Shown here piece after piece: positions 3,001 through 18,266 of a stretch of 20,645 bases of DNA; the first letter of the stretch is position 1, and the number at the start of each line of letters is the position of its first letter. The stretch is taken from the IMG/VR virus record IMGVR_UViG_3300042892_001735, positions 1-20,645 of that record. One strand, 5' to 3'. The notes below the pieces were generated by a model. It saw only the letters and a program-made list of their open reading frames with translations, did not search any database and had not been told where the DNA came from. The position numbers and the translations under genes are program-made. This stretch comes from a virus.

Positions 3001-6000
3001 AGCAAAATGGAAATATTACGAACAAGGTGATCTATCATACAGAGTCGGCCATTGGAATTCTTTAGCAGAAGGTGCGAGCATAGATATCTACGAATGGGTA
3101 GAATCATTATTGCTTCCATCTGAATGGGCATCGGTAGCAGACACCAACGAAGGATTAGCCGAAGGAATCAGCGGCCAACCTTTATATCCTAACAACGATG
3201 TTTACACAGTTAAGGAATTATATAGCTCAGCTACAGGATTAGCTACCGGTACATTATATTACTACTGGGTTAAGAATAAGGTAAATCCTCCGGAAGGTAT
3301 GGCTAGTAGAAGAATTTCTGCTGCATCTGTTTCTTCTTATATAAGCAATCCTGGAGGCTCTGGAGTCGCATTTATATCTCTCTTAGGAGCAGATAAATTT
3401 TTAGCATATAATTTTAATTCAGTGATCTCTACAGATACTGCATTAATAAACATTCAGTATCACAAAAATAATAAAAATTTAAATCCTATTCACAACGAAT
3501 ATCAATTGTTGACCGAAGGGGTTGAGGATAGTCTTCCTTCTCTAAAATTAGAAAACAAATGGATTGACAGTTTGGTCGGAACTGATGTGGCTGGTAATAG
3601 AGTACCCGATCCTGCATTGCCAGCTAAACAAGCACACGGTGTAAATTATCGACCAAGACAAGGTATGTTTATTAACAGGATTCCTGTTCTTAAAACAGTG
3701 ATCGAAAATACTAATACCATACTGCAAAAGGAACCATTTGCAGATATTATTGATTTTACTAATTTAAATCTAGCAGACGAAGTTCCGTCTTCTGAATTAA
3801 ATCTCTACGATATCGAAATAGATACCTACATTGATTTAGAGAATGTTGGTACAGCAAGAACAAGAAAAGCAGTATTAAGAGCCAACATTGTTGATGGTTC
3901 AATTGATACTATTGATGTGCTAGTTTCTGGATTTGGATATAAGAAAATTCCTCCAGTGATAATTGACGGAAACGGAATTGGAGCAAAAGCTGAAGTTTCT
4001 ATAGATAGCCAAGGCAGAGTTATATCTGCAACAGTGTTGGCTAGAGGAAGAAAATATAGTTCTGCTCTAGCATCAATTAGAAACTTTTCAGTATTGGTCA
4101 AAAGTGATTCCACTTTAGACAATAATTGGAGTATCTATTCTTGGGATGACGAGCGTCAAGTTTTTTACAGAAGTCAATCGCAATCGTTTGATACTAAAAA
4201 ATACTGGTATAAAACTCATTGGTGGAAAACCGGGTACAGCGATAAGTCTCGAATAATTAAAGAAATTATCAGTGTTTACCAAGAACCCACAGTCTCGGTA
4301 TCTATTGGAGATCGATTGCGTATAAAAGAATATTCAAACGGCGGATGGGCAGTCTTTGAAAAGGTAGCAAACACCGGTGAGTTCCTAGATAGATATACGA
4401 TGGTTGGTAGAGAGCTAGGTACTATACAGTTAAATGCTTCTTTATATAATACTGCATTATCCGGAATAGGTTTTGATAATGACAATTCGTTTGATTTAAA
4501 TTCATACGATTTAGAAAATTCTAAAGAATTAAGAAATATATTAAAGGCAGTTAAGGAAGATATCTTCATAGGCAACTATGCAGTTGAATGGAATGGATTG
4601 TTCTTTTCATCTATTAGATATGTATTCACTGAACAGCAATACGTTGACTGGGCATTTAAAACCAGCTTCTTAAATGCAATACACAATGTTGGAGATCTAA
4701 GTCATCCAACAGTGAATTATAAGAATGACAATCTATCCAGCTTCCAAGATTATATAAACGAAGTAAAACCATATAGAACAACAATCAGAGAATATGTAAG
4801 TAGGTATGATTCTTTAGATAATTCAAACACAGCAGTAGCTGACTTTGACCTGCCGCCGACATACTCTACTACTGAAGGTAAAATTGTAACTATACAAAGC
4901 AACAGCGGAGAGTTATCACAATATCCGTGGAAGTGGTGGGCAGATAATAACGGGTATTCGGTAGTAGCTATTGAAATTGCTGATGCCGGAGCCGATTATA
5001 GAGAGCCGCCGAGGGTGGTAATTACTGGATCAGGAACTGGCGCCACAGCACAGGCTTATATTTCTAATGGAGCTGTTTCTGGAATTAGGATGATTACCAC
5101 AGGTACTGGATATAGTTCGGCTCCGATAGTTTCGTTGGTAGGCGGAAATGGTGCTAGTACATCAATAGCTAGAGCGGTGGCGATTTTAGGTGATTCAAAA
5201 GTTCGAACTTTTGATCTTGCAATTAAATTTGACAGGATCACAAAAGATGGATTGTACACAAAATTTTTACAAACTGAGCCGACAATTACATCTACAGGTG
5301 AAACAGCAGTATTTGATCTCTCTTATGCTCCTACTAGAGATAAGAGTAAAATTACCATCTTAAGAAATAATCAATTGGTGTTGCGAAATGAATACGATAT
5401 CAATCTTTACAAATCTTCAACAGATACATATGGATTATTAAAAGGCAAACTAATTTTTAAATTGCCTCCCGCAAAAGATGATATTATTAACATTGTCTAC
5501 GAAAAAAATGACGATCTATTAGATGCAGTTAATAGAATACAAAAATATTATGCACCTCAGAGCGGAATGAAAGGCAACGAGTTAGGCCAGTTAATGACCG
5601 GTATAGATTTTGGTGGAGTTCAAATACAAGGAACAACATTTGAAGTAACTGGTGGATGGGATGCATTGCCTTGGTTCACTGACAATTGGGACAGTGTGGA
5701 AAGTTCTGCAGATTACTATGTTGTTTGCGATGGTAGTACAGAAGAAATAACATTGCCTTTCATACCGTTATCCGGACAGGAAATAACAATTTACATACGC
5801 AGAGTAGGTGAAGCGATTCCTCGAGATATCGAAAACCTACAATATACACAAGAAACTCCTGCGCCAGCAACTGTGAGAATTGACGATCCGAACTATTCTG
5901 ACAATTGGGATAGTACTAGTGCTGTAAACCCAGCAGCTCAGATGCCAACATTTGTGGGAGACGGATCAACCATTGTTGTAGAAATTGGAAGATATATTAA

Positions 6001-8266
6001 TACCCTCCCAGGCGATATATTGATATTCCGTCCTATCGAAAGCGATGGATCTGTAACAATAACCGATCCTAATCTAGTAGATACAAATCTCAGCGGCGGT
6101 ACGTTAAGTGCTATGAGCGGAGCATATTCCACAGCTACTGGACTATCCTCACAAGATATCTCTATAGATGGCGATAAATTTATCAGTCCGGATCAAGTGC
6201 CTGCACCAGAAGAAAATATTCCTGGACAAGTATTAGATAGTGTAAGCATCAAAGTATATAACAATACTCCTAGTGGTGCTGCTCCAATACTTACAAACAT
6301 TATAATTTCTAATGGCCAGGTAAAAAACTTTGACATCGGAACAAATATTATTAAATCGTCATCAGTTATAGTGTACGTTGATAAACAACAACGAGTACTA
6401 GGCAGCGGACCCGACGATTACTCTATTAATTTTTATACAAATCAAATTGAATTTGTAAATGCTCCGATAGAAAATTCTATAATCGAATTAATCTCAATTG
6501 GATTAGGAGGTTTAGAAATTTTAGATTACCAGGAATTTACAGCAGACGGAGACACTGACTTATTTTTAACAAATGCAAACTACGAGTCCACTAGCACAAT
6601 ATTAGTTACTGTTAACGGAAATGAGACAAATGTTGGATTTGAGGACAGCACAGACGTTGTTGACACTCCTGGAAAAACTCTGGTTAGATTTGGAACTAAG
6701 CCTATTTTTGCAGACAAGATCAAAATAGTATGTCTCGGAGCAAGTGCAGACGTAGACAGTTCCGAACTAGCAGTTGTTCGAATTAATCAACAGACTATCT
6801 ACCATGACGGATCAACAGTAAGTTATGATCTTGATAATTTTGTAAATTTAGAAAGAGCAGCAGCTATATCTTCTATGATAGTAGAAGTTAATGATAGAGC
6901 TCTAAAAAGCGTAGATACCACATATGTTATCTACGACGGAATTACTAGTCAGTTTACATTAGGAACAGACCCAGTTGAATCGGCAGGCGCAATCTTAGTC
7001 AGCAATATCAAAGTGTTTATTAACGATGAGTTAAAAACATTTATTCAAGACTATAATTATGATGGAACGACTAAGTCTTTATCAATAAACGAATCAATAC
7101 TATCAGTTGGCGATATTATCAAGATCGAAAATGATTTTAGGGCAGAATATTCTATATCCGGAAGCAACATCATTATTGCAGATTCGATATTATCTACTTT
7201 ACAAAAGAACGACGACAGCACATTAAAAGATAAGATTAAAGTAACATGGTTCAGCGAATATCCTTCAATGAACTTGGTGTCAGACGAGTATGTTGGTGGA
7301 AAAGTCCAATACCAATTAGCACATGTTCCGTTGGGAGTTGAATACGTATGGGTATATAAAAATGGTGTTAGATTAACTCAAGATCAGGATTATTACGTTT
7401 CCTTATTGCGAGGAGTGATTTATTTAACATCACCCTCTACAGAAAATGATCTGATAAAAATAATATTATTTGGATCTAATACATTTAAGCTACCTAGCGC
7501 TTTTGAAATTCACAAAGATATGTTGAATATCTATCATTTCAAACGATATTCTAAGGGCACTGTAAAACTAGCCACTACGTTAAATTACTATGATCAAACA
7601 ATAACAGTTGACAACGGAGATGTGTTAGGTGAGCCAATATCTTCTAAAAACATTCCAGGGGTTGTACAAATCAATGGGGAAAAGATAGAATACATGGTAA
7701 AGGTCGGAAATACATTGAGCCAATTAAGAAGAGGCAGTTTTGGAACACCAATCGCAGAGTCATACTCTGCAGGTAATTATGTAGTCGACATCGGAACTCA
7801 TGAAACTATTCCGTACAATGAAACCCAAGAAAGAGAAGATTTCGTCAGCGACGGAAGCTCTACTATAATCGGTCCGTTGAGTTTTGTACCAATTAAAGCT
7901 ACTAGAAATTCGTGGGAACGTGTTTCGATTCCAGAATCGTATGGACCATGCGATCAGATAGAGGTATTTGTTGCAGGACGTCGATTGAGGAAAAATCCAA
8001 TTGATCTATATAACGAGGATTCTGGAGCTAGCAGCCCTGCCGCAGATATTACATCAGAAGCAGAATTTGCAGTTGACGGAACAACTTCGTACTTTAGACT
8101 AACTTCGGCAGTTCCGGCAGGAACTAGAATATCTGTTATTAGAAAAACAGGAAAAACATGGTATGAAAGATCGGAGACAACCGCCAGCAGAGGCATTACA
8201 CTGCTGGAAAATGACACACCGATTGCTAATTTCATAGCACAAAAGACAACGAAACTACCAGAATAA
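2..8266 (+). CDS. Giant virion structural protein (baseplate/tail-associated), 5' partial
   Basis: The frame that contains the first ATG at 434 is open back to base 2, so the true start is upstream; 2754 codons are visible (numbered here from base 2). Codons about 330-910 hold at least six FG-GAP-like blades (FGNDMAVSPDS, FGSKISI, FGSSMAMSRDGS, LGWALDLDYSG, FGQSVVISPDT, FGYSIDCS, each followed by a GSP or ASP turn and GxVYIY-like strands), which suggests a beta-propeller. Three CBM5/12-like inserts interrupt it (nt 1085-1215, 1500-1650, 1839-2015). Next come a YYYWVKNK block (nt 3250-3800), two G-x-GY/PPxV repeat units (nt 3805-4075 and 4960-5190), a VKPYRTTIREYVSRY segment (about nt 4760-4815), DNWDS blocks, and repeated beta-modules with VNG/KNGVRL and DYY strands. 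Near the end lies an INGEKIEY...LRRGSFGT block. From memory this block order matches giant structural proteins of T4-like cyanophages and pelagic myoviruses. A location at the baseplate or tail periphery, perhaps in a gp7- or gp10-like role, is inference. I see no enzyme motif. Confidence 0.85.
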   Translation, partial: DKLSRSIGTSIVLNEEWAFRVGQLGGVDQLTEIEIQLIKKDLTLNPQSILITDSKPESTADQIYRIVRSDFTVEPLPYTSGINPVSQDLLPIKTAGYVKTNHVNRTIKDKLALGSLDITEFQENDHVWLTFNNGSWTVLRFNESMNLAVTDAVRTDDTVLLTLTRRHDLQIDDYVGLKIVNLTGFFKIIETDVNTITVESTATSDPEIDPSSFSNVYLFTNSRFSNYADIDPSHMALLKSGSKLWIDVNEDGNWEVVEKNKQYSYKSITDFGVSTPSGTGHKVIYDDNLKQSLVSIPGAGYVISYTEAPSQLSLKQIIAPPTGFESNVLGSFGNDMAVSPDSRWLIVGSPGATAASNYKGNFNVSASYLADDIVLYAGKLWKALTDNTGDGSTIDLDSNDWEPAVILSPSTTGRHPGYTGQGMISIYEYSNQQWELRNSFVSPRPENGENFGSKISIGVSSGIYYMAVSAPGSLDNRGRVYLYTYDGSEWKHLENSNYAGIYDQTGDTYYPEGSIVWHNGNLWQSLQDSSGDGSTITVESAGWRKIDPVSTQTSLPTNVALDDDGSTLALGMLSETQLAELIKQDDLFGSSMAMSRDGSILAIGSPNSDGQYFENYRGVWRPDIEYIEGDVVKFEDVYHRLVDSRIDQAVDSTIRSFNEEPVGLPWENVGDSSAESSGKVYIYQRNSYGFYDLSQTINSEAMPYINDLESGETYISSGDQLGWALDLDYSGTTLVIASPKADVNFQNQGSVYVLKTDGYAPVEYRLKQRLESFEQYPNEYFGQSVVISPDTSKIIVGAKNSPYVSFTRIDSTQGTSFDQGKTKFSDRKGSSGSAYIFERKSDIYFLSEKLEAEFSPFESFGYSIDCSNSAILVGSPDYISPAPHLAILSYDGPKTGIARLFKKDPSLNSLELLSVQEPIVDIAKIKSIALYDNVNNRKIQDVDYIDNAKLKILNIAEQELKFKTVYDPAVYSIGTDAVVVDPRTAWAEKNVGALWWNLSTAKWKYYEQGDLSYRVGHWNSLAEGASIDIYEWVESLLLPSEWASVADTNEGLAEGISGQPLYPNNDVYTVKELYSSATGLATGTLYYYWVKNKVNPPEGMASRRISAASVSSYISNPGGSGVAFISLLGADKFLAYNFNSVISTDTALINIQYHKNNKNLNPIHNEYQLLTEGVEDSLPSLKLENKWIDSLVGTDVAGNRVPDPALPAKQAHGVNYRPRQGMFINRIPVLKTVIENTNTILQKEPFADIIDFTNLNLADEVPSSELNLYDIEIDTYIDLENVGTARTRKAVLRANIVDGSIDTIDVLVSGFGYKKIPPVIIDGNGIGAKAEVSIDSQGRVISATVLARGRKYSSALASIRNFSVLVKSDSTLDNNWSIYSWDDERQVFYRSQSQSFDTKKYWYKTHWWKTGYSDKSRIIKEIISVYQEPTVSVSIGDRLRIKEYSNGGWAVFEKVANTGEFLDRYTMVGRELGTIQLNASLYNTALSGIGFDNDNSFDLNSYDLENSKELRNILKAVKEDIFIGNYAVEWNGLFFSSIRYVFTEQQYVDWAFKTSFLNAIHNVGDLSHPTVNYKNDNLSSFQDYINEVKPYRTTIREYVSRYDSLDNSNTAVADFDLPPTYSTTEGKIVTIQSNSGELSQYPWKWWADNNGYSVVAIEIADAGADYREPPRVVITGSGTGATAQAYISNGAVSGIRMITTGTGYSSAPIVSLVGGNGASTSIARAVAILGDSKVRTFDLAIKFDRITKDGLYTKFLQTEPTITSTGETAVFDLSYAPTRDKSKITILRNNQLVLRNEYDINLYKSSTDTYGLLKGKLIFKLPPAKDDIINIVYEKNDDLLDAVNRIQKYYAPQSGMKGNELGQLMTGIDFGGVQIQGTTFEVTGGWDALPWFTDNWDSVESSADYYVVCDGSTEEITLPFIPLSGQEITIYIRRVGEAIPRDIENLQYTQETPAPATVRIDDPNYSDNWDSTSAVNPAAQMPTFVGDGSTIVVEIGRYINTLPGDILIFRPIESDGSVTITDPNLVDTNLSGGTLSAMSGAYSTATGLSSQDISIDGDKFISPDQVPAPEENIPGQVLDSVSIKVYNNTPSGAAPILTNIIISNGQVKNFDIGTNIIKSSSVIVYVDKQQRVLGSGPDDYSINFYTNQIEFVNAPIENSIIELISIGLGGLEILDYQEFTADGDTDLFLTNANYESTSTILVTVNGNETNVGFEDSTDVVDTPGKTLVRFGTKPIFADKIKIVCLGASADVDSSELAVVRINQQTIYHDGSTVSYDLDNFVNLERAAAISSMIVEVNDRALKSVDTTYVIYDGITSQFTLGTDPVESAGAILVSNIKVFINDELKTFIQDYNYDGTTKSLSINESILSVGDIIKIENDFRAEYSISGSNIIIADSILSTLQKNDDSTLKDKIKVTWFSEYPSMNLVSDEYVGGKVQYQLAHVPLGVEYVWVYKNGVRLTQDQDYYVSLLRGVIYLTSPSTENDLIKIILFGSNTFKLPSAFEIHKDMLNIYHFKRYSKGTVKLATTLNYYDQTITVDNGDVLGEPISSKNIPGVVQINGEKIEYMVKVGNTLSQLRRGSFGTPIAESYSAGNYVVDIGTHETIPYNETQEREDFVSDGSSTIIGPLSFVPIKATRNSWERVSIPESYGPCDQIEVFVAGRRLRKNPIDLYNEDSGASSPAADITSEAEFAVDGTTSYFRLTSAVPAGTRISVIRKTGKTWYERSETTASRGITLLENDTPIANFIAQKTTKLPE
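2739..2758. repeat. Short inverted repeat inside the giant gene
   Basis: Nine-base arms TATCGGTTC (2739-2747) and GAACCGATA (2750-2758) are exact reverse complements separated by AG. The element lies in the coding sequence just after the last propeller blade (codons for LSVQEPIV). With short loops allowed, about one such 9-base dyad is expected by chance in 20 kb, so a function is not implied. Confidence 0.5.
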
Positions 8267-8269: not shown

Positions 8270-8285
8270 CACATATGGAATCACA

Positions 8286-8290
8286 AGAGA
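8286..8290 (+). promoter_or_regulatory. Weak Shine-Dalgarno AGAGA that favours the 8296 start
   Basis: AGAGA lies 5 bases before the ATG at 8296. No Shine-Dalgarno-like sequence precedes the upstream in-frame ATG at 8275. If the late promoter at 8262 is used, the mRNA would begin at about 8275, leaving that first ATG with no leader. Confidence 0.4.
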
Positions 8291-8295
8291 CTAAC

Positions 8296-8928
8296 ATGCC
8301 AGAAAACAAAGATCATAATACTAGACCAAATGAAACAGGTGGCTTTCATTTCGAGGGCCATATTAAAATTTGGTATCCAGAAACTGGAGAAATTGCCGTT
8401 GATAAGAGAAACGCCATTCACTATGAAAACATGAGTGTTGCTATGGTACAGAGTTTGAGTAATCAAGGACAAGGTACAGTCTATCAAATGGTATTCGGAA
8501 CCGGCGGAACTATTGTAGATCCCACAGGATTAATTACATATCTTACTCCGAATACTGTAGGTATTAATACCAGTTTGTATAACCAAACATACACAAAGGT
8601 AGTGGATCAGAATGCCGCAGCAAATGCTGATCCTGTTAGAAACAAAATGGAAGTCCGACATATAAGTGGTGCTACTTACAGCGATATCTTAATCAGCTGT
8701 TTATTAGATTATGGCGAACCTATCGATCAAGAAGCATTTGATAATTCTGCAGACCTTAGCGGAAATTTTGTGTTTGACGAGCTAGGATTAAAAAGCTATA
8801 ACCCGTCGGGCGAAGGAAAATTGCTTACACACGTTATTTTCCATCCTGTACAAAAAAGTCTAAACAGATTATTACAGATCGATTATACGATTCGTGTACA
8901 GAGCTTAACTGGTTTCACAGAGGTATAA
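8296..8928 (+). CDS. Conserved marine T4-like phage structural protein, function unknown
   Basis: The protein has 210 residues from MPENKDHN. An in-frame ATG at 8275 would add seven residues. I prefer 8296 because AGAGA precedes it and because the distance from the late promoter then matches the other promoters in the window. The sequence FHFEGHIKIWYPETGEI, followed by VDKRNAIHYENMSVAMVQSL, YLTPNTVG, NKMEVRHISGATYSDI, FDELGLKS and LTHVIFHPVQKSLNR, fits, from memory, a family found beside tail-fibre genes in T4-like cyanophages and pelagic myoviruses. It is rich in predicted beta strands and has no signal peptide, membrane segment or catalytic motif. Its position between the giant protein and the fibre array suggests a baseplate or fibre-attachment part, but that is inference from context. 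The next gene starts three bases after its stop. Confidence 0.75.
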   Translation: MPENKDHNTRPNETGGFHFEGHIKIWYPETGEIAVDKRNAIHYENMSVAMVQSLSNQGQGTVYQMVFGTGGTIVDPTGLITYLTPNTVGINTSLYNQTYTKVVDQNAAANADPVRNKMEVRHISGATYSDILISCLLDYGEPIDQEAFDNSADLSGNFVFDELGLKSYNPSGEGKLLTHVIFHPVQKSLNRLLQIDYTIRVQSLTGFTEV

Positions 8929-8931
8929 TAG

Positions 8932-11055
8932 ATGCCATATATTGTTAATTTTACAGATAGCGACAACAAAACACCGATAACGGTTTTTGACAACACGTCT
9001 AATACCAGTACCAGTCTAACATTTCCAGGTAGAAACGTTACTGGATACGGTCAAATTATAGCTGAAAACTTTTTATCTCTTTTAGAAAATTTCGCCAGTG
9101 CCAGTCAACCAGTCAATCCTACAGAAGGACAACTGTGGTATGATAGTATCAATGGTATCATGCAGGTCTGGGACGGAACAAATTGGAAAGCTGCGTCAAA
9201 CATACAAAAGTCTGCAACAGAACCCAGCGTAGAAAATTCTAAAGTAGGTGAATTGTGGGTAGATACTACCAATCAGCAATTACGTATATACACAGGTACT
9301 CGATGGATTTTAGTTGGTCCGAGTGAAAGTTCTATAGACGGTTTAAGATATGGTCCGGCAGTAGAAAAAGTAGCAGACAGCGATAACATAGACCGATCTA
9401 TTTTGATTTTCTATCTGGCAGATATTCCTGTGGTAATTTTTAGCAAAGACAGTTTTACTCCTAAAATTGGTATTGCTGGATTTACACTAATCAAAGCGGG
9501 TATGAATGTTAACATTCCCGGCGATCCGGCATCTATCGCAGAATTTGAAGGAGGATTCCTTCCTAAGCTATACGGAACAGCGCAAAATGCAGATGCATTA
9601 AATGTTAGTGGTGTTGAAATCGCTGCTGGAAAATTCTTAAGATCAGACTATCCTAATTCTACAGAATTTGGTTTGCGCATTATCAACAACAGTGGTATAA
9701 CTCTTGGTGTAGATGGAACTTTCAATATTTCAAATACATCTACGGCTGCAAAAATTTACAACTCTGCCCCTGGTAGCTCTTTAGATTTGCAGGTAAACAG
9801 GAACGGCATAGCAAGTACTATATTGCGAATCTTAGATGATAAAGTTGGTATCAATACAGACACGCCAGACCAAGCATTGGACGTAGATGGTAATATTGGA
9901 TTAAACGGTTCATTGATAATATCCAATGCTACTGAGAGCACCAATCTAAGCAATGGTAGTATTATAACTGCTGGTGGGGTATCAATAGCAAAGAATTTAT
10001 TAATAGGCACAGATCTAACAGTAACAGGTGTTACTCAAACAGCAAACATTCAACCTAGACTCACAGATACGTATGACTCTGGTACGGGATTAAAGCGTTG
10101 GAAAACAGTTAGAGCAAAATCAATTATCGCTGATGAGATCGAAGGAGTATTAAACGGAAATATTAACGGAAATGCTAATACTGCTACTAACCTTAAAAAT
10201 GTTACAACTTTTCAAATTGTAGGCGACGTTATTAGTCCGACTGTGCAGTTTGACGGACAGATAGGTAGCTACAATAAAACGTTCACTACATCGCTGACAG
10301 CTAATATTATTAAAGGCAAGGACGAACCGTTTCCGAACGTTTCCAAGAAAACAGATTATATCCTATCCTACAGATCCAGTGCTGAGACTGCGACCAACTC
10401 CGGATTATTAAAACAAACACGAGATGCGTTTGTAGGCGATCTCGGACTGCCGATTGGAGCGATGCTACCATATGCTGGTGCTAATGCTCCAGACGGATTT
10501 TTATTCTGCGACGGATCAGAAGTTGAAAGATCAAAATTTCCAGATTTGTATGATGTAATTGGATCCACGTATAACGGAACAACGGCGTTGTTGGGCGTAA
10601 ACACATTTAAACTACCAGACTTGCGAGGCAGATTTGCTCTCGGCAAAGATAACATGGATAACAATGGAACAGTTCCAACATTATTAGGCGGCTATGTAGA
10701 TGCCGGCGGCGGAACCGCATCGCGTGTTCCTGATACCAAAGCACAGACACTAGGTGGTGATGCAGGGCAGAGTTCTACAAGTTTGACACTGGCTAACATT
10801 CCAGATCATGATCATAGTTTGCAAAATGCTGGCGTTCAGTATTCTGCCATTAAGGTAGACACTGCAATTACTTCGGGAGCAACACCAGGTCTCGGACCAA
10901 CAGCTCCTGGCCAGGCACAGTATCTAAATTCATCAGGACCAGTTAAAAAACCGGATATTACCTTTGCATTAGGTCAGCCAATTGGTATAATGAATCCATT
11001 TCTAACAATCAATTATATTATTAGATCTGGACCACCTGCATTTATTACAACATAA
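8932..11055 (+). CDS. Tail fibre paralogue A with C-terminal Tail Collar domain
   Basis: The protein has 707 residues; AGAGG at 8919-8923 sits 8 bases before the ATG. Residues 1 to about 205 form the domain shared with the genes at 11069, 13003 and 15541: MPYIVNFTD, GRNVTGYGQ, ENFLSLLENFA, GQLWYD, VWDGTNWK, RWILVGP and KDSFTPKIGIAGF. The shaft contains GINTDTPDQALDVDG (about 304), an LKRWKTVRA strand (about 387) and GNINGNANTAT. From about residue 504 (GLPIGAMLPYAGANAPDGF, then LFCDG, FKLPDLRGRF and a closing NPFLTINYIIRSG) it has a phage Tail Collar domain as in T4 gp12 and related short fibres. H626-D627-H628 in NIPDHDHS is an HxH motif, which in T4-type fibres binds metal. The likely role is receptor binding or host-surface anchoring, with the N-terminus mounted on the virion. 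A trimeric state is expected for the family but is not visible in the sequence. Confidence 0.88.
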   Translation: MPYIVNFTDSDNKTPITVFDNTSNTSTSLTFPGRNVTGYGQIIAENFLSLLENFASASQPVNPTEGQLWYDSINGIMQVWDGTNWKAASNIQKSATEPSVENSKVGELWVDTTNQQLRIYTGTRWILVGPSESSIDGLRYGPAVEKVADSDNIDRSILIFYLADIPVVIFSKDSFTPKIGIAGFTLIKAGMNVNIPGDPASIAEFEGGFLPKLYGTAQNADALNVSGVEIAAGKFLRSDYPNSTEFGLRIINNSGITLGVDGTFNISNTSTAAKIYNSAPGSSLDLQVNRNGIASTILRILDDKVGINTDTPDQALDVDGNIGLNGSLIISNATESTNLSNGSIITAGGVSIAKNLLIGTDLTVTGVTQTANIQPRLTDTYDSGTGLKRWKTVRAKSIIADEIEGVLNGNINGNANTATNLKNVTTFQIVGDVISPTVQFDGQIGSYNKTFTTSLTANIIKGKDEPFPNVSKKTDYILSYRSSAETATNSGLLKQTRDAFVGDLGLPIGAMLPYAGANAPDGFLFCDGSEVERSKFPDLYDVIGSTYNGTTALLGVNTFKLPDLRGRFALGKDNMDNNGTVPTLLGGYVDAGGGTASRVPDTKAQTLGGDAGQSSTSLTLANIPDHDHSLQNAGVQYSAIKVDTAITSGATPGLGPTAPGQAQYLNSSGPVKKPDITFALGQPIGIMNPFLTINYIIRSGPPAFITT

Positions 11056-11068
11056 TTAGAGCAAACAT

Positions 11069-12982
11069 ATGGCATATCAGATTAATAAAACAGACGGGTC
11101 GATAGTTTCTACGGTGGCAGATGGTCAGGTAGATCAGCTGTCTACCGATTTAACATTGATTGGAAAAAATTACAGCGGGTTCGGCGAAGCGTTAAATGAA
11201 AATTTTATCAAATTGCTGGAGAACTTTGCTGGAACAACTAGACCATCTAAACCAATTAGGGGACAAGTGTGGTTTGATTCGTCCGAATTAAAATTAAAAG
11301 TATACAGCGGAAGTGAATTCCTTCCAGTTAGCTCAGCAACGATATCCAGTACACAGCCGTCATCTCTAGGAGTTGGTGATTTGTGGTTTAATGATATTGA
11401 TAGACAGTTGTATTTCTTTGATGGTACAAACACAATTTTATTAGGTCCGGATTATTCAACAAGTCAGGGTGTTAGCGGACTACGGGTAGTTAGTCTTTTA
11501 GATACACTCAATCAAACTCGAGTGATCACAGGATTGTATAACAACGGAATACTATTAGGTATATTCGCCAAAGATAGCTTTGCACCTAAAAATGCCATAG
11601 ACGGTTTCTCTGGCAGCATTATTCCGGGATTCAACGCTGGTAATTTGGCCGGGATCAAGTTTAATGTAACTTGTACTAATTCGGAGCAATTAGGCGGAAC
11701 AGTCGCTACTACGTATGTTAGAAAAGATACTTCAAATGCCATAGACGGACAATTACGAATCACAACAGATTTGGGATTAGTAGTCGGTTCCGCTGGACAG
11801 GCAAACTTAACAGTATCTAGTGGTGATGTATTGCTATCTAATGCTGCTTCAGATAAAAATATTGTTTTTAATGTAAGACGAGGTATTGCTGAAGAAACTG
11901 CATTTGAAATCAAAACAGCAACTAGGGTAGTTCAATTCTATGAGGGGTTGCCCTCAAGTATTGTGGGGTTTGGTGGTGATGTTGAAATCACAGGAAATCT
12001 TACAGTCCAAGGAACTACAACAACAATCAACACAGCTAACATCTCTGTAGAAGATAAAAGCATAACACTAGCAAGATCAACAGGAATAACTCCCACAGAT
12101 GCAAATGCTGCAACAGGCGGAATAATTCTACAAGGAGCATCGAGCCATGTATTTCTTTGGCATGATGTTGGTCAAGCGTTAACGGCATCATCCGGAGCAG
12201 CGTTATCTGAAGGATACAACGATGGCATACCAGCGTTAGCTAGTCAAGCATGGAATAGTTCTGAGCACATCAACTTAGCTAGTGGAAAAGAATTTAAAAT
12301 TGACGGAGTTACGGTTATATCCGGAAATTCGTTAGGTATTGGAATCACAAGTATTCCAGGTGTAACTAGTTTTGGCGCACAAACTTCACTAACTGTTGAT
12401 AACATATTTGTTGATGGTTCTACTATACAAGTAACTGCATCAAACACAGACTTAACATTGGCCATTAATGGAACCGGAACATTAAATCTAGGAAATAAAA
12501 AGATCACTAATGTTGCAGATCCAACTGCTGGCCAACATGCTGCGACTAAAGAATATGCAGATAACACCGTTGAAACCCGACCAGTTATTTTAAGTATCGA
12601 TTTATCTGATGGTAAACCTAATAGCTATATTATTAATAGTATTCTAAACGGTCCAGCGACCCCCGGCGGAATTGGTGTAGCTCCTGATCCGAATACCGCC
12701 GCAGCAAGAACAGAAACTGCATATTACAGATCTGGAACGATTGCTAAGATATTATGTAATATCATCGTAAATGGTTCTACGAGTTTAGACATCAATCCAT
12801 TGATAAGTCAAAGCACATCAACTTTCACGACACCAACAGGCACTGCTCCGGCAGTTACTAACGTTGCTATTTCTTCTGCTACCGTATCGGCAGCATCGAT
12901 ATCAACAACAAGAATTATTAAAACTTTTCAAATAGTGGCAGGAGCATGGACACATGTTTCAGATACACTATTGCCACCATAA
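11069..12982 (+). CDS. Tail fibre paralogue B with ATKEYAD stalk motif
   Basis: The protein has 637 residues. A weak AGAG (11058-11061) lies 7 bases before the ATG, and the start aligns with MAYQVDK and MPYTINK of the paralogues. Residues 1 to about 200 are the common fibre domain (GKNYSGFGE, NENFIKLLENFA, GQVWFD, GDLWFND, ILLGPD, KDSFAPKNAIDGF). Residues about 311-335 carry LTVQGTTTTINTANISVEDK, a segment widespread in phage fibre shafts. Residues about 478-500 carry KITNVADPTAGQHAATKEYAD, the usual fibre motif before a C-terminal tip. The last 135 or so residues (PVILSIDLSDG to SDTLLPP) are Ser/Thr/Ala-rich and not recognised; they are probably the receptor-binding tip. The gene lies 13 bases after the previous stop, in the same transcription unit. 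Confidence 0.85.
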   Translation: MAYQINKTDGSIVSTVADGQVDQLSTDLTLIGKNYSGFGEALNENFIKLLENFAGTTRPSKPIRGQVWFDSSELKLKVYSGSEFLPVSSATISSTQPSSLGVGDLWFNDIDRQLYFFDGTNTILLGPDYSTSQGVSGLRVVSLLDTLNQTRVITGLYNNGILLGIFAKDSFAPKNAIDGFSGSIIPGFNAGNLAGIKFNVTCTNSEQLGGTVATTYVRKDTSNAIDGQLRITTDLGLVVGSAGQANLTVSSGDVLLSNAASDKNIVFNVRRGIAEETAFEIKTATRVVQFYEGLPSSIVGFGGDVEITGNLTVQGTTTTINTANISVEDKSITLARSTGITPTDANAATGGIILQGASSHVFLWHDVGQALTASSGAALSEGYNDGIPALASQAWNSSEHINLASGKEFKIDGVTVISGNSLGIGITSIPGVTSFGAQTSLTVDNIFVDGSTIQVTASNTDLTLAINGTGTLNLGNKKITNVADPTAGQHAATKEYADNTVETRPVILSIDLSDGKPNSYIINSILNGPATPGGIGVAPDPNTAAARTETAYYRSGTIAKILCNIIVNGSTSLDINPLISQSTSTFTTPTGTAPAVTNVAISSATVSAASISTTRIIKTFQIVAGAWTHVSDTLLPP

Positions 12983-13002
12983 TGAGACCAGGAGCGGTTT
13001 AA

Positions 13003-15144
13003 ATGCCTTATACAATTAACAAATACAGCGGCGTAGAATTAGTAGTCCTCGATGACGGGACTATTGACACGACTACGAGCTTGGGATTAGTTGGAAGAAA
13101 CTATGTTGGAAACGGAGAAACTCAGAACGAAAATTTTGTGTTTCTACTAGAAAATTTTGCCAACGATACTCCACCGGCGAGGCCGCTCAGCGGACAGACA
13201 TGGTTTAATACAGATAATAATTTATTGCATGCCTATGACGGAACTAAATGGATAGTTGTGGGGTCTGCTGTAGTTTCGGAGACCCCACCCGACGGTCCTC
13301 CAGGTGGCGCCTTCTGGTTTAAATCTCCGACAAATAGCTTACATGTATATAATGGAGATCGATGGGTATTTATAGGACCAGAAAATGCCGAAGGGTTCGG
13401 CGAAACAAGAACTAGGTCCGGAACACTGATTGATTCTGATGGCAATACTAATCCTGTTATATTTTTAACAGTAGATGATACAGTATTAGGGATTATATCT
13501 AATAAAGCATTCACTCCAGCAGTAGGTAATTCAATTTCCGGATTTAGTAGTTTGGCAATCGGGTTGACGATGTCAACTTCTGCAGGCATTAAATCAAACT
13601 TAACTGGTCGTGCAGATAGAGCAACAAGATTAGAAACAACAAGATTAATAAATGGCATTGGGTTTGACGGACAAACAGATATAACAATAAAATCATCTAC
13701 TACAAATTATCTCACCAAAGGTGCGTATATACTAGGAGATAATTTTGATGGATCTGCGCCGTCGACTTGGGCAGTTGACGCAACTCCCTCTAATGTCATA
13801 GGTAAAGTTGTAGCAAGAAATAGTGAAGGCGGGTTTTCAGCCAGTACTATAACAGCTAATTTCATAGGTAATCTAACAGGCAACGTGACAGCAGTATCTG
13901 GAACAAGTTCGTTTGATGTCATAACAGCCAACAATTTTATCGGAGCTACGTTATCTGGAAATGCATTTTCTGCCACGCAATTACAAACACCAAGAACTAT
14001 AAATGGTGTTTTGTTTAATGGAACTGAAAATATAACAGTGGCCGCTAATGCACAGACATTAATTGGTACTTATATTGCTAACACAGTCTTAACATCCAAC
14101 CTTCAACAAGTCGGAACATTGAATTCTTTAAATGTTGCTGATGCTGGTATCACATTGGGTGTAGGAAGCTCGTTGAGAATTTTAGTTGATTCGTCAACTC
14201 CGACTATCAGATCCTTTACTGGAACATTAAATTTTGATATGGGTGAGACTGGACCGGATGTTTCATTTGTTAATTCTGCTAGATCCCTAGCATTAGGCGG
14301 CCCAAATGCTCCAGCTATAATCGGAGACAACACCACCAATCTAGGAATTACTGGATATAAATTTAATAATATCTATGCCAACAATTTCTTAGGAAATGCA
14401 ACCACAGCGACTTCGGCAACCACAGCAACAAACATAGCAGGTGGCGGCGCAGGTGCAATACCATATCAAACAGCAATCGGTACAACTGCGCTTCTACCAG
14501 TAGGTACAACTGGACAGGTTTTAAAAGCCGGATCCGGAAACACTATCCAATGGGAAAATCAAATTTTCTCTAATCTAACAAAGAAAACATCAGACAGTTA
14601 TTTGGTGTTAACCACAGTTGGGGGAGATGTTAGTTCTTATAATACACAGATAGCTACCACTATCTCTGTAGATGCAACATCAGCAAGCACAGCAAATAAA
14701 GTAGTTGCTAGAGATTCAACAGGCGGATTTAGTGCCACTAACATAACTGCGACATTACTTGGAAACGCTACATCTGCTACTAGGCTACAAACCGCGTATA
14801 CTATTAACGGTGTACCGTTTGATGGTACTGGAAACATAACAATATCTACCAACTACACAATAATCTCCGGAGCTAACTACAGCACCGCTGGATTTACTAA
14901 CCAAGTAGGCAGTTTCAATAACGGAGCCAACTTTTTTGATGTATTTCCTCCGTCTGGTAAATCCATGGGTAATATTGTGGCATTTATACCTTCCATTCAT
15001 GTAATACATTTTGCAGGTGGAGTAAACGGAGACGATTCATTGAGATGTACATATTCATATCTTAGCGATAGAATACGAGTTTATGTGCAAAACACAGAGC
15101 AACGATCAACACCAGCAGCCAATTGGCTAGCGGTATGGAGTTAA
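13003..15144 (+). CDS. Tail fibre paralogue C with INGxxFDG repeats and FDVFPPSG tip
   Basis: The protein has 713 residues; AGGAG at 12990-12994 is 8 bases before the ATG. Residues 1 to about 205 are the common fibre domain (GRNYVGNGE, NENFVFLLENFA, GQTWFN, YDGTKWIVVG, RWVFIGPE, NKAFTPAVGNSISGF). The shaft holds three copies of a tail-fibre repeat: LINGIGFDGQTDITI (about 216), TINGVLFNGTENITV (about 333) and TINGVPFDGTGNITI (about 601). It also has two copies of a VVAR(N/D)S-GGFSA unit (about 269 and 567), GNLTGNVT, and alanine/threonine-rich turns (TTATSATTATNIAG). The C-terminal 80 residues (VGSFNNGANFFDVFPPSG, VIHFAGGVNGDDSLRC, RIRVYVQNTEQR, ANWLAVWS) match, from memory, a tip domain common in cyanophage fibres. 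The likely role is receptor binding. The chaperone-like gene follows immediately, so this fibre is its best candidate client. Confidence 0.87.
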   Translation: MPYTINKYSGVELVVLDDGTIDTTTSLGLVGRNYVGNGETQNENFVFLLENFANDTPPARPLSGQTWFNTDNNLLHAYDGTKWIVVGSAVVSETPPDGPPGGAFWFKSPTNSLHVYNGDRWVFIGPENAEGFGETRTRSGTLIDSDGNTNPVIFLTVDDTVLGIISNKAFTPAVGNSISGFSSLAIGLTMSTSAGIKSNLTGRADRATRLETTRLINGIGFDGQTDITIKSSTTNYLTKGAYILGDNFDGSAPSTWAVDATPSNVIGKVVARNSEGGFSASTITANFIGNLTGNVTAVSGTSSFDVITANNFIGATLSGNAFSATQLQTPRTINGVLFNGTENITVAANAQTLIGTYIANTVLTSNLQQVGTLNSLNVADAGITLGVGSSLRILVDSSTPTIRSFTGTLNFDMGETGPDVSFVNSARSLALGGPNAPAIIGDNTTNLGITGYKFNNIYANNFLGNATTATSATTATNIAGGGAGAIPYQTAIGTTALLPVGTTGQVLKAGSGNTIQWENQIFSNLTKKTSDSYLVLTTVGGDVSSYNTQIATTISVDATSASTANKVVARDSTGGFSATNITATLLGNATSATRLQTAYTINGVPFDGTGNITISTNYTIISGANYSTAGFTNQVGSFNNGANFFDVFPPSGKSMGNIVAFIPSIHVIHFAGGVNGDDSLRCTYSYLSDRIRVYVQNTEQRSTPAANWLAVWS
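13258..13288 (+). repeat. Perfect 9-bp hairpin within fibre C coding sequence
   Basis: GTGGGGTCT (13258-13266) and AGACCCCAC (13280-13288) are exact reverse complements around a 13-base loop. Six of nine pairs are G-C, which is strong for this AT-rich DNA. The hairpin covers the codons linking the two W-type motifs of the common N-terminal domain (VVGSAVVSETPP). No U-tract follows, so it is not a standard terminator. Confidence 0.5.
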
Positions 15145-15148
15145 AAAT

Positions 15149-15505
15149 ATGTACTACGTTTGTATAGAAGATAATAAAGTAATTAATATATTAAATTATA
15201 ATCCATCAGTACCTTCTACGGTATTGATTAAAACTATATCTGATCAGGATTTTCAAAAAATCATGGATCAAACCCACGTCTATGATGTTTCGACAAGCTC
15301 TGTAGTTGCTGTCGCTGCTGAAATACTCAGTCATCGAGAAATTGAACTGCAAAATGGTATAGAATTAGAGTTTTTGAGATCGACGGATTGGAAAGTTTTA
15401 AGGCATCTCAGACAAAAATCACTGGGAATTACTCCTAGTTTGACAGACTCACAATACTTAGAATTAGAAAGATTACGAGATGCTGCTGCGTCCCGTATAG
15501 TTTAA
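15149..15505 (+). CDS. Putative tail-fibre assembly chaperone (Tfa-like)
   Basis: The protein has 118 residues. TGGAG at 15136-15140, inside the end of fibre C, is 8 bases before the ATG; only four bases separate the stop of fibre C from this start, which suggests coupling. The N-terminal half (MYYVCIEDNKVINILNY) looks like a short beta domain. The C-terminal half has a long helix (AEILSHREIELQNGIELEFL) followed by RSTDWKVLRHLRQKSLG, SLTDSQYLELERLRDAA. The pattern of a TDW motif, then LT-x-x-x-YLxLxxxRxxA, is typical of small fibre-assembly or fibre-associated proteins of tailed phages (Tfa and DUF4376-type). Such proteins bind fibre tips and help trimers fold. The family assignment rests on this motif and on position; it could instead be a structural adaptor. 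It is the only gene of this kind among four fibre paralogues. Confidence 0.65.
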   Translation: MYYVCIEDNKVINILNYNPSVPSTVLIKTISDQDFQKIMDQTHVYDVSTSSVVAVAAEILSHREIELQNGIELEFLRSTDWKVLRHLRQKSLGITPSLTDSQYLELERLRDAAASRIV

Positions 15506-15509
15506 AGCG

Positions 15510-15517
15510 AATAAATA
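15510..15517 (+). promoter_or_regulatory. T4-type late promoter (NATAAATA) ahead of fibre D
   Basis: AATAAATA lies in the 35-base gap between the chaperone-like gene and fibre D. The surrounding 11 bases, GAATAAATACA (15509-15519), are identical to those at 8261-8271. Transcription is expected to begin about 6-7 bases downstream, leaving a short leader with GGAG at 15530-15533 and the ATG at 15541. This gives 15541-20285 its own late transcript. Confidence 0.75.
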
Positions 15518-15540
15518 CAAGAACCGGGCGGAGTTAACAC

Positions 15541-17331
15541 ATGGCATACCAAGTAGATAAATTTAATGGAACATTTTTAGTATCAGTCGAAGACGGTACT
15601 ATTGACACAACTACGGATTTACGATTCGTAGGTAAAAACTATGCAGGATACGGTGAAGTACAGAACGAAAATTTCTTACATTTACTAGAAAATTTTGCAA
15701 ATACCAGTGCACCGCCTAAGAAAATTTCGGGTCAAATATGGTATGACAGCGGAAATAAAAAACTAAAATTCTATGATGGTTCTAAATTCAAGGTAGCTAG
15801 CGGAGCTGAAGTAAGCTCTACTGCGCCTAGCGGATTAGGAACAGGTGAATTTTGGTGGGATAGTTCAGCACAACAGCTTTATACATGGTCGGGCACAGAG
15901 TTCGTATTAGTCGGACCAGAAGCTAGTCCGGAACTAGGAGCTTCGGTGGTTAGTGCAGTGGTAGTTAAAGACTCTCTGAACAACAACCACTCAATAATGA
16001 AACTGATTACCGGCGGTAAAACCATTGCAGTGGTCAGTCCAGACGCATTTACACTCAACAGCACAGTGAATCCTATCGAAGATTTTACCTTGATCAAGAA
16101 AGGTATCACTATAGCAAAGACCAACTCCGTGGGGGTTTCTAGTGATGACTATGTCTATTGGGGAACAGCATCAAATGCACTTAAACTAGGTGGCGTTGAC
16201 GCTGCTAATTTTGTGCAAAAAGGCGCCATTGTTTTTGACAACGAAATTGGTTTCAAAGACCCAGGACTGCAAGTTGGAGATGGCAATGATCTAAGAATCC
16301 GTGTAGAAAACGGAGATGAAGTTATTGTTGAAAATAGGTTAGGCAATGATATTATATTTAGAATAACAGTAGCTGAAGGTACTGACGAACGAGATGTTGC
16401 TATAATGACTGCTAACGGAGTTGTTCCGGGCAGCAATAATTCGTTTAATCTAGGTACTGCGCTGTTAAGATGGAACACTGTGTACGCAGGTACATTTAAT
16501 GGCAATCTAACAGGCAATGTAACTGGTGATATTACTGGAGTACATACCGGAAATCTTAGAGCAACTGATACCACACTAATGATCAATGCAGCCACTAAGC
16601 AGATAGGTTATGATGGTGCTACAATTAGAGGAAACTTGTTCGGAGCAGTTGATGGAAATTTAAATGGTACAGCATCAAATTCCAGTAAATTAACTAACTA
16701 TTCTCCATCGATCAGCATACCAGCCGGCGAAGTCAGCATTCCTATTAGAGATTCTTCAGGCGATTTATATGCAAACAACTTCTATGGTGTTGCTAGTAAA
16801 TCAGAAAGATTAAGAATAAACAATGCTGCCACCGACGATGCATGGAATTCAGCATCGGCTAGTACACAATACAGGTCAGCAAAGACCACAGCAACACCCT
16901 ACAGCATAGCAGCCAGAGATGCTAGCGGAAACATGGAAGCTAATTTGTTCCAAGGTACTGCTACCGCAGCTCAATACGCTGACTTAGCTGAAAAGTATCT
17001 ACCAGATGCGGAATACGCTGCTGGCACAGTTATGATTATTGGCGGCGAAAAAGAAGTTACTGCAAGTACATGGGGTAAACGAGCGATCGGGGTAATTAGT
17101 ACCAATCCAGCTTACATGATGAACAAGGATTTAGAAGGTGGCGTTTACGTTGCTCTAAAAGGTCGTGTTCCAGTTAAGGTAATCGGTTCTGTTAAAAAAG
17201 GAGATAATCTAATAGCTGCCAATGACGGATGTGCCACAGTGGGGGTGCATCATTCAAGCGAAGTATTTGCCATTGCATTAGAAAGCAATAGCGATACAGG
17301 TACAAAATTAGTAGAAGCGGTGATTTTATAA
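15541..17331 (+). CDS. Tail fibre paralogue D with ADLAEKY C-terminal domain
   Basis: The protein has 596 residues; GGAG at 15530-15533 is 7 bases before the ATG. Residues 1 to about 200 are the common fibre domain (GKNYAGYGE, NENFLHLLENFA, GQIWYD, GEFWWDS, FVLVGPE, PDAFTLNST). The shaft has LRWNTVYAGTFNGN and the repeat GNLTGNVTGDITG (about 310-335). Residues about 480-596 begin with ADLAEKYLPDAEYAAGTVM and continue GGEKEVT, KRAIGVISTNPAYMMN, LKGRVPVKVIG and KKGDNLIAANDGCATVG. From memory this block ends many marine phage fibres. It resembles the C-terminal domains of phage fibres that assist trimer folding, some of which cut themselves off, but I cannot name catalytic residues, so any autoproteolysis is speculation. 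The next gene starts directly after the stop codon. Confidence 0.85.
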   Translation: MAYQVDKFNGTFLVSVEDGTIDTTTDLRFVGKNYAGYGEVQNENFLHLLENFANTSAPPKKISGQIWYDSGNKKLKFYDGSKFKVASGAEVSSTAPSGLGTGEFWWDSSAQQLYTWSGTEFVLVGPEASPELGASVVSAVVVKDSLNNNHSIMKLITGGKTIAVVSPDAFTLNSTVNPIEDFTLIKKGITIAKTNSVGVSSDDYVYWGTASNALKLGGVDAANFVQKGAIVFDNEIGFKDPGLQVGDGNDLRIRVENGDEVIVENRLGNDIIFRITVAEGTDERDVAIMTANGVVPGSNNSFNLGTALLRWNTVYAGTFNGNLTGNVTGDITGVHTGNLRATDTTLMINAATKQIGYDGATIRGNLFGAVDGNLNGTASNSSKLTNYSPSISIPAGEVSIPIRDSSGDLYANNFYGVASKSERLRINNAATDDAWNSASASTQYRSAKTTATPYSIAARDASGNMEANLFQGTATAAQYADLAEKYLPDAEYAAGTVMIIGGEKEVTASTWGKRAIGVISTNPAYMMNKDLEGGVYVALKGRVPVKVIGSVKKGDNLIAANDGCATVGVHHSSEVFAIALESNSDTGTKLVEAVIL

Positions 17332-18258
17332 ATGACTACCGGAGCCCAAATTGCTGCTACGCAGTATAACAGCATACGCAACCAAATTATAGATGTCCTA
17401 GGTTCCGGTTCAGGAAATCGAGGATACGGGCAGACTATACAAAGTGCCGCTGTGTTTTCGGGAAATATAATAACCAAAGCACAGTGGGAAGCTTTACGCT
17501 ACGATCTTTTTAATATAAAAGTACATCAAGATGGAGTCGCTCCTAATCTAGCCGAAGTTGCACCAGCACCAGCCGCGATTCGATATGGTGCAGGTCATCC
17601 TAATTTTAATTTTGAGTTTGTGGCAACTAATGCCACAGCGAACAGATTTAACATAGGCAACGGCCAATCTATTTTATCTACTAAAGCCACTAGAACTTTC
17701 AGTACTAGCTGGTCGGTATCGGCCACCACAGAGCTCACAGTTAGTTTTGCTACAGCCGATGATGCTAGATACTTTTTTAATAGTGGCGGCAAGATAAGAT
17801 TTACCAGCACTAGGACTGACGGTTCTGCAACTTCGCAGAACAATGCATGGACTAATACACTAAGCCAAGCAGGAACACAGAGCTTTGGCGCTAACACACC
17901 TCTTAACATCAATTTTTATACGTTGACCAACACCTACACCGGCGGTGAATTTTACCAATTAAACAACAGTACACCGTATTCCGCTAACTATTATCAGATA
18001 GCTGCCAAGTGTGATGTTCCAAATAATTCAGTGGGTGGTGCTACAGTATTAACATTTAGGATTACATGGAAAGATGACTATGTAGACCCGGATGTGATTT
18101 CTGGATTTCCAGCTGGAACTAATCCAGCATCGGGAGTAGTCGACGGGACACTGAGTCTTATAGTGGAAGAATTAAAAGCATCAGGTAGTCTACAACCCAC
18201 AGGATCATTTACAATATCTAGTCCAATATATAGTCTAGCAGTGATTTCAGCGACATAA
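17332..18258 (+). CDS. Virion/fibre-associated protein with YNxIRxxIxxVLGSGSGxxGYGQ domain
   Basis: The protein has 308 residues. The ATG abuts the stop of fibre D (TAAATG), with GGTGA at 17319-17323 as a Shine-Dalgarno 8 bases before it, so translation is probably coupled. The N-terminal segment (YNSIRNQIIDVLGSGSGNRG, then YGQTIQS and ITKAQWEALRYDL) is helical and followed by beta-rich sequence with FFNSGGKIRFTST, a QNNAWTNTLSQAGTQSF stretch and GTLSLIVEELKASG. The whole protein is paralogous to residues about 370-672 of the next gene. From memory this domain recurs in structural proteins of T4-like cyanophages and pelagic myoviruses. No enzyme motif is visible. Being cotranscribed with fibres suggests an accessory fibre or adhesin role. 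The function is unknown. Confidence 0.75.
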   Translation: MTTGAQIAATQYNSIRNQIIDVLGSGSGNRGYGQTIQSAAVFSGNIITKAQWEALRYDLFNIKVHQDGVAPNLAEVAPAPAAIRYGAGHPNFNFEFVATNATANRFNIGNGQSILSTKATRTFSTSWSVSATTELTVSFATADDARYFFNSGGKIRFTSTRTDGSATSQNNAWTNTLSQAGTQSFGANTPLNINFYTLTNTYTGGEFYQLNNSTPYSANYYQIAAKCDVPNNSVGGATVLTFRITWKDDYVDPDVISGFPAGTNPASGVVDGTLSLIVEELKASGSLQPTGSFTISSPIYSLAVISAT

Positions 18259-18266
18259 GTAGTCAT

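What the first reader, a model, noticed from the sequence alone, without database searches (positions are those of the whole stretch)
8932..17331. Four paralogous fibres with one shared mount and four different tips
The genes at 8932, 11069, 13003 and 15541 share about 200 N-terminal residues (GxNxxGxGE, ENFxxLLENFA, GQxWxD, a repeated W-x-D/G strand, VGPE and FTP-x-x-GF) and then diverge completely. Their C-termini are a Tail Collar domain, an unrecognised tip after ATKEYAD, an FDVFPPSG tip and an ADLAEKY domain. This looks like successive duplication with tip replacement, giving a set of receptor-binding proteins that may compete for, or occupy separate, sites on the baseplate.
Basis: partly seen in the sequence, partly recalled or inferred. 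Interest (0 to 1): 0.6.

Follow-up and report, generated by a model that had tools for sequence, protein, structure and literature searches.

The report
Four phage fibres, one swappable tip
An uncultured T4-like phage carries four tail-fibre genes built on one shared base; across dozens of relatives three of them always keep the same tip while the third repeatedly exchanges its tip together with its helper gene, so probably only that fibre changes which bacteria are recognised.

Summary
In detail: genes at 8932, 11069, 13003 and 15541 (A-D) share a homologous N-terminal mount and end in four different tips. In relatives from IMG/VR the set A-B-C-D is fixed in number and order (57 of 57 long loci, plus 15 more divergent ones) and each mount forms its own clade, so the duplications are old. 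Tips are inherited intact in A (57/57), B (63/63) and D (74/75; the exception is a broken ORF). Only C swaps. Its tip comes in seven unrelated families, each paired one-to-one with a particular C-D intergenic cassette. Close relatives with 91-96% identical mounts share 12% identity in the C tip. DNA similarity resumes within 45 bp of the D start in all pairs tested, and the A+B+D tree needs at least 10 tip changes. In the window the cassette is one tail-fibre-assembly-like gene (15149-15505). D's 'ADLAEKY domain' belongs to the phi29 gp12 / Peptidase_G2 self-chaperone family and is probably not a receptor tip. A's tip resembles the T4 short tail fibre. The best reading is a baseplate with three constant fibres and one exchange slot. 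Adsorption roles are inferred, not tested.

The parts
8932..11055 (+). Fibre A: mount about 8932-9501, shaft, Tail Collar / T4 gp12-like tip about 10456-11052; constant in relatives
11069..12982 (+). Fibre B: mount about 11069-11638, tip of unknown family after ATKEYAD (about 12548-12979); constant in relatives
13003..15144 (+). Fibre C: mount about 13003-13572, shaft, exchangeable tip about 14839-15141 (family T0; model resembles H-type lectins and pyocin/phage fibre tips)
15149..15505 (+). Tail-fibre-assembly-like gene (118 aa), cognate partner of the T0 tip; found in 24/24 T0 loci and 0/45 others
15506..15541 (+). Right edge of the exchanged cassette: DNA similarity between loci with different C tips resumes within 45 bp upstream of the D start codon
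15541..17331 (+). Fibre D: mount about 15541-16110; C-terminal Peptidase_G2 / phi29 gp12-type intramolecular chaperone domain about 16951-17328; constant
8275..8928 (+). 217-aa conserved protein next to the mount genes (phrog_11259; 41-57% identical in PA5oct, Vibrio phage 2.275.O, Atu_ph07 and Phosso); its PA5oct homologue is annotated ESI-MS/MS
2..8266 (+). 3' part of a giant virion structural gene in the T4 gp7 position (4,733 aa in relative G001); runs off the left end of the window
17332..18258 (+). E: 308-aa protein following D; homologue of PA5oct gp360 (annotated ESI-MS/MS)
18267..20285 (+). F: C-terminal half paralogous to E (36% identity), with an added glycine-rich N-terminal part that most relatives lack

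Best explanation
The locus is the distal baseplate/fibre module of an uncultured T4-like myovirus of the broad Atu_ph07 / Phosso / PA5oct type. Four ancient paralogues, A-D, each carry the same kind of N-terminal mount, presumably for the baseplate wedge. A, B and D are constant parts: A ends in a T4 gp12-like collar domain, B in an unknown tip, and D in a phi29 gp12-like intramolecular chaperone. C is the single exchange slot. Recombination replaces the distal half of C together with the chaperone cassette behind it, and the join falls just before D. C is therefore the likely host-range adhesin, and the gene at 15149-15505 is the assembly helper of the window's T0 tip. SHOWN here: paralogy, fixed order, old duplications, C-only exchange, one-to-one pairing of tip and cassette, and the breakpoint. 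INFERRED: baseplate attachment, receptor binding by C, chaperone action, and the functions of A, B and D.
For: Mounts homologous. 57/57 long loci carry exactly A-B-C-D, and every gene best-matches its positional orthologue. 15 divergent loci agree. Mount tree: A 98/95, B 100/99, D 99/99, C 74/57 support. Tip families: A 1 of 57, B 1 of 63, D 1 of 74 intact, C 7 of 69; gap lengths fall in one class per C family. Different-type pairs: A/B/D tips 55-64% identical, C tip 12%. C-type on the A+B+D tree: at least 10 changes against 5 minimum. Cassette ORFs: T0 chaperone 24/24 against 0/45; T1/T2 ORFs 31/31. C end plus gap aligns in 0 of 393 different-type pairs and covers 70% on average in same-type pairs. 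Similarity resumes at -45 to 0 bp of the D start in 387 pairs. T0 tip also occurs in Cellulophaga, Winogradskyella and cyanophages, with an annotated tail assembly chaperone next to it in S-8S55. C-tip model nearest to H-type lectins and R-pyocin fibre tips, weak E-values. PA5oct homologues annotated ESI-MS/MS. T4-like baseplate order upstream.
Against: No structure or virion data exist for this clade. The mount shows no detectable profile similarity to T4 gp9, gp10, gp11 or gp12, and its nearest fold (CBA120 TSP4-N) is not significant (E 0.5), so baseplate attachment rests on synteny and PA5oct. The C-tip fold match has E 0.06. Sampling kept the 80 best of at least 590 relatives, all close to D's mount. 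The distant locus L116 has only three mount genes, with new tips on its A-like and B-like genes, so A and B are constant only within this clade.
Confidence: 0.8

Rival explanations
1. All four are equivalent receptor-binding proteins, each swapping its tip and together giving a multivalent host range, as in the Ackermannviridae tailspike set.
For: Four paralogues with a shared N-terminal region and four different tips in the window; known precedent in Ackermannviridae (PMC8432352). In the distant locus L116 the A-like and B-like genes carry other tips.
Against: Within the sampled clade A, B and D tips are one family each, 55-64% identical even between loci whose C tips are unrelated.
Confidence: 0.1
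2. The four genes are recent tandem duplicates whose tips are shuffled among themselves (A<->B<->C<->D) by recombination between the shared mounts.
For: Shared mounts offer homology; the T3 C tip is in the same family as the D tip (50% identity, E 2e-42).
Against: Mounts form four clades. C-type T3 tips and D tips also form separate clades (D 100/96), so there is no recent D-to-C copying in the sample. The other C tip families match unrelated phages or nothing, not A, B or D as a whole tip.
Confidence: 0.06
3. C's variable end is not an adhesin but a decoy or structural cap evolving neutrally, or the variation is a metagenome assembly artefact.
For: No functional data; contigs are metagenomic.
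Against: Discrete tip families recur with the same cassettes in many independent samples; at least 10 changes on the tree; T0 tip residues are strongly conserved within type (29 of 101 invariant over 20 sequences), and the tip occurs at fibre ends of unrelated phages.
Confidence: 0.04

Closest known systems
Jumbo phages Sinorhizobium Phosso, Agrobacterium Atu_ph07, Pseudomonas PA5oct, Vibrio 2.275.O (homologous locus)
   Same: Same order of giant virion structural gene, ~200-aa protein and mount gene(s); Phosso, Atu_ph07 and PA5oct also carry the D-type C-terminal domain
   Different: They show one (Phosso, Atu_ph07, Vibrio) or two (PA5oct gp358, gp359) mount genes, not four; no C exchange slot was seen there
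Ackermannviridae TSP1-4 (CBA120, Kuttervirus)
   Same: Several receptor-binding proteins per virion, with conserved N-terminal regions and swappable C-terminal modules (PMC8432352, PMC8825819)
   Different: There TSP1-4 all diversify (33, 25, 16 and 23 subtypes) and tips move between TSPs; here only one of four varies. Homology of the mount to the XD domains was not shown
Fibre-plus-chaperone modules (T4 gp37/gp38, Mu S/U, Alteromonas V22/A5)
   Same: Distal fibre exchanged with a helper encoded directly downstream; the same module occurs in unrelated phage families (PMC10579305, PMC7289586)
   Different: Here the module is slotted into one specific member of a four-paralogue set while its neighbours stay constant, and some cassettes also hold an oxygenase-like ORF
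T4 gp9-gp10-gp11-gp12 baseplate periphery
   Same: Same position downstream of the gp25/gp6/gp7-like genes; A's tip is similar to gp12
   Different: The mount profile shows no similarity to gp9, gp10, gp11 or gp12
Peptidase_G2 / phi29 gp12 intramolecular chaperone
   Same: D's C-terminal domain passes the Pfam cut-off (26.4 against 25); YADLAEKY aligns on phi29 gp12 WSDFAEYF
   Different: The residue before the aligned Asp is Ala, not Ser; whether D is cleaved is unknown

Membership tests
Tail fibre with exchangeable tip and cognate chaperone (gene C plus 15149-15505) | Helper gene directly downstream of the fibre, same strand | tested here: met
   15149-15505 starts 4 bp after C ends
Tail fibre with exchangeable tip and cognate chaperone (gene C plus 15149-15505) | Helper belongs to a tail-fibre-assembly family | tested here: met
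   Homologue in L012: phrog_188 tail fiber assembly, E 1e-6; window copy: phrog_8716, E 5e-7; the similarity is weak
Tail fibre with exchangeable tip and cognate chaperone (gene C plus 15149-15505) | Tip and helper are inherited and exchanged together | tested here: met
   24/24 against 0/45; gap classes; 0 of 393 different-type pairs align there
Tail fibre with exchangeable tip and cognate chaperone (gene C plus 15149-15505) | Helper needed for folding of the fibre; tip binds the host | not testable with these tools
   Needs co-expression and binding assays
T4 gp12 short tail fibre (gene A) | Tail Collar domain at the tip | tested here: met
   PF07484, 67 bits against cut-off 24; T4 gp12 structure 1ocy E 5e-4
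T4 gp12 short tail fibre (gene A) | gp12-like N-terminal part | tested here: not met
   Mount profile against T4 gp12: probability 0.1%
T4 gp10 / CBA120 TSP4-N XD-domain mount | Sequence-profile similarity to gp10 | tested here: not met
   hhalign probability 0.4%
T4 gp10 / CBA120 TSP4-N XD-domain mount | XD-type fold | tested here: inconclusive
   Foldseek best hit is CBA120 TSP4-N but E 0.5, TM 0.21
Ackermannviridae-like multi-RBP complex | Several RBPs per genome with conserved N-terminal regions | tested here: met
   Four mounts
Ackermannviridae-like multi-RBP complex | C-terminal modules diversify in all members | tested here: not met
   Only C
Peptidase_G2 intramolecular chaperone (end of gene D) | Passes the Pfam curated cut-off | tested here: met
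   Tip alone 26.4 bits against 25; 25 of 30 members match at E<=0.01. The full protein scored 21.2, below cut-off
Peptidase_G2 intramolecular chaperone (end of gene D) | Ser-Asp autocleavage site with nearby Glu | tested here: inconclusive
   Asp and Glu invariant in 30 sequences, Ser replaced by Ala; the site residues in phi29 gp12 are from own knowledge

The most novel reading that the evidence does not exclude
The baseplate has a dedicated exchange slot (fibre C) beside three constant paralogues, and in about half of the loci (T1 and T2 tips) the exchanged cassette also carries a 2OG-Fe(II) oxygenase-like enzyme that modifies the new tip after translation. Host-range change would then mean acquiring tip, folding helper and modifying enzyme as one unit.
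Probability: 0.2. Interest if true: 0.7.

Novelty: new variant of a known kind. Interest (0 to 1): 0.5.

Why it matters
Phages with several fibres are usually assumed to diversify all of them. Here comparative data single out one of four homologous fibres as the variable one, with a precise replaceable unit (distal C plus its cassette, ending at the D start). That predicts from sequence alone which protein sets host range in a large, uncultured group of T4-like phages. The tip/cassette typing gives a simple marker for linking these viruses to hosts, and the oxygenase-bearing cassettes raise a testable question about tip modification.

Tried and rejected
Megablast of the whole window against 50,697 phage records gave nothing. 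A mount profile against PDB sequences gave no hit, and against T4 gp9, gp10, gp11 and gp12 nothing. Foldseek of the mount model (pLDDT 78, pTM 0.44) was not significant. B's tip has no match in known phages, and the window chaperone has no tblastn match there. A sheath search (PF04984) in five related contigs was negative, so the myovirus assignment rests on the baseplate genes read in G001 and on the isolates. The C-tip profile against the PDB gave only chance hits. Promoter and terminator scans were at shuffle level. Considered and rejected: recent duplication, tip copying from D to C, and exchange at all four positions.
Full report
WHAT IS THERE. The window is a 20,645-bp IMG/VR virus record. 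The four ORFs are at the stated coordinates and are homologous to one another: BLASTP E 3e-29 to 4e-53, with 40 invariant columns over about the first 190 residues. Their last 110 residues are unrelated. The order is: the 3' part of a giant virion gene, a 217-aa protein, A, B, C, a 118-aa gene, D, E, F.

WHERE IT BELONGS. tblastn with the C mount finds Sinorhizobium phage Phosso, Agrobacterium phage Atu_ph07, PA5oct-like Pseudomonas phages and a Vibrio phage. All keep the order giant virion structural gene, ~200-aa protein, mount gene(s). The 217-aa protein is 41-57% identical in these phages. PA5oct gp355, gp357, gp358, gp359 and gp360 are annotated 'ESI-MS/MS', so homologues of these parts are annotated as detected by mass spectrometry. 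A 195-kb relative (G001) places gp53-, gp5-, gp25-, gp6- and gp7-like genes upstream, read here from sequence. This is the order of the T4 baseplate genes, where gp9-gp12 follow gp6-gp8.

FOUR FIXED POSITIONS. A scan with D's mount gave at least 590 relatives; the 80 best were kept. Every locus long enough to show it, 57 of 57 including the window, has exactly four mount genes in the order A-B-C-D, each best matching its positional orthologue. A second scan from the most divergent member gave 15 more four-gene loci and one distant locus (L116) with three. In a tree of mounts, A, B, C and D are each one clade, well supported for A, B and D and weakly for C. The duplications are therefore old, not successive recent events.

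ONLY C EXCHANGES ITS TIP. Clustering the last 110 residues gives one family for A (57 sequences), one for B (63), one for D (74 plus one broken ORF) and seven for C (24, 19, 12, 10, 2, 1, 1). Between loci with different C types, A, B and D tips are 55-64% identical while C tips are 12% identical, no more than expected for unrelated sequence. The closest case, L018 against L041, has mounts of A, B and D at 91-96% identity, the D tip at 85% and the C tip at 12%. On a tree of A+B+D for 33 dereplicated loci, C type needs at least 10 changes where 5 would suffice for six types inherited once each.

THE EXCHANGED UNIT. Each C family has its own C-D spacing class: 385-401, 963-984, 1472-1477, 34-62, 50, 479 and 253 bp. 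Each has its own cassette content. The window's chaperone-like gene is in 24/24 T0 loci and 0/45 others; two ORF families are shared by all 31 T1 and T2 loci and by no others; a third is only in T2. The end of C plus the gap never aligns between different types (0 of 393 pairs) but covers 70% on average within types. DNA similarity resumes 0-45 bp before the D start in all 387 measurable pairs; the left edge is diffuse, typically between codons 320 and 590 of C. The unit is therefore 'distal C plus its helper cassette'.

WHAT THE TIPS ARE. A: Tail Collar domain, similar to T4 gp12. C (T0): found at fibre ends of Cellulophaga, Winogradskyella and Synechococcus phages. In S-8S55 the next gene is annotated as a tail assembly chaperone. 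The AlphaFold2 model (pLDDT 85) is a beta-sandwich nearest to H-type lectins and R-pyocin or phage fibre tips, but E-values are weak (0.06 and above). D: the ADLAEKY domain passes the Peptidase_G2 cut-off when scanned alone, and its profile finds phi29 gp12 and the Dpo31 chaperone domain. It is therefore best read as an intramolecular chaperone, cleaved or not, rather than a receptor tip. The T3 C tip is a related domain (50% identity) that forms its own clade beside D's; T3 is also the C tip of the L086-like clade. One plausible history is that C and D once shared this domain and that external cassettes later replaced it in C; this is inference. T3 and T4 cassettes, whose tips are G2-like and collar-like, have no ORF in the gap, while other types bring a separate gene. 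This fits the published view that separate fibre chaperones resemble built-in ones (PMC10579305).

HOW IT PROBABLY WORKS. Inference from the above and from known phage biology: four homologous mounts seat four different trimeric fibres on the baseplate periphery. A, B and D do jobs that do not depend on host strain. C carries the variable adhesin, whose folding helper must match, which is why the two travel together and why the join falls before D.

OXYGENASE-LIKE ORF. In T1 and T2 loci (31/31; 0/38 others) the gap also holds an ORF with an HxD motif in a 2OG-Fe(II)-oxygenase-like context. One copy gives a sub-threshold PF13532 match, and PHROGs names the family 'DNA endonuclease', so the assignment is uncertain. 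In cyanophage S-8S55, genes annotated as 2OG-Fe(II) oxygenases flank the related tip. The window itself has none.

COMPARISON AND NOVELTY. Modular tips, cognate chaperones and multiple fibres on shared N-terminal domains are all known (PMC8432352, PMC10579305, PMC7289586, PMC10253068). What differs is that one position of four ancient paralogues is the only exchange slot in this clade, with a replaceable unit defined at base-pair scale on its right side. I rate it a new variant of a known kind.

LIMITS. No host is known. Loci are metagenomic and were selected by similarity to D's mount. The mount's fold and its attachment point are unresolved. In the distant locus L116 the A-like and B-like genes carry other tips, so constancy of A and B holds for this clade only.

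Noticed in passing
window 17332-20285: E and F are a second paralogous pair (36% identity). F carries an extra ~360-aa N-terminal part with a glycine-rich domain; most relatives have F without it (about 290-340 aa) and a few have other long additions on E or F.
   Followed up: partly
L025:8878-9495, L015:9027-9524 and the equivalent gap in all T1/T2 loci: Oxygenase-like ORF with an HxD motif that co-travels with T1 and T2 C tips; PHROGs calls the family 'DNA endonuclease', Pfam gives a sub-threshold 2OG-Fe(II) match.
   Followed up: partly
window 2-8266: Giant structural gene cut by the window edge: reading frame open to base 2, 4,733 aa in G001; contains FG-GAP repeats and a CBM_5_12 chitin-binding-type module.
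   Followed up: partly
L116:7989-14935: Distant relative with three mount genes: A-like and B-like genes with unrelated tips, and a D-like gene with the D tip; no C.
   Followed up: partly
L040:10001-10642 and L102:3678-5297: Single broken D ORF (L040) and single broken B ORF (L102) in otherwise intact sets; could be frameshift, mutation or sequencing error.
   Followed up: no
L096:8203-9405 (Campylobacter phage CPt10): The D-type C-terminal domain also occurs in Campylobacter Firehammervirus genomes, in genes between gp25-like and sheath genes.
   Followed up: no
L005, L008 and G001 downstream of the fibre genes: Radical SAM genes are annotated downstream of the fibre module in Phosso and Atu_ph07; in G001 two ORFs at about 49514-51708 look similar by eye, alongside glycosyltransferase-like ORFs.
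   Followed up: no
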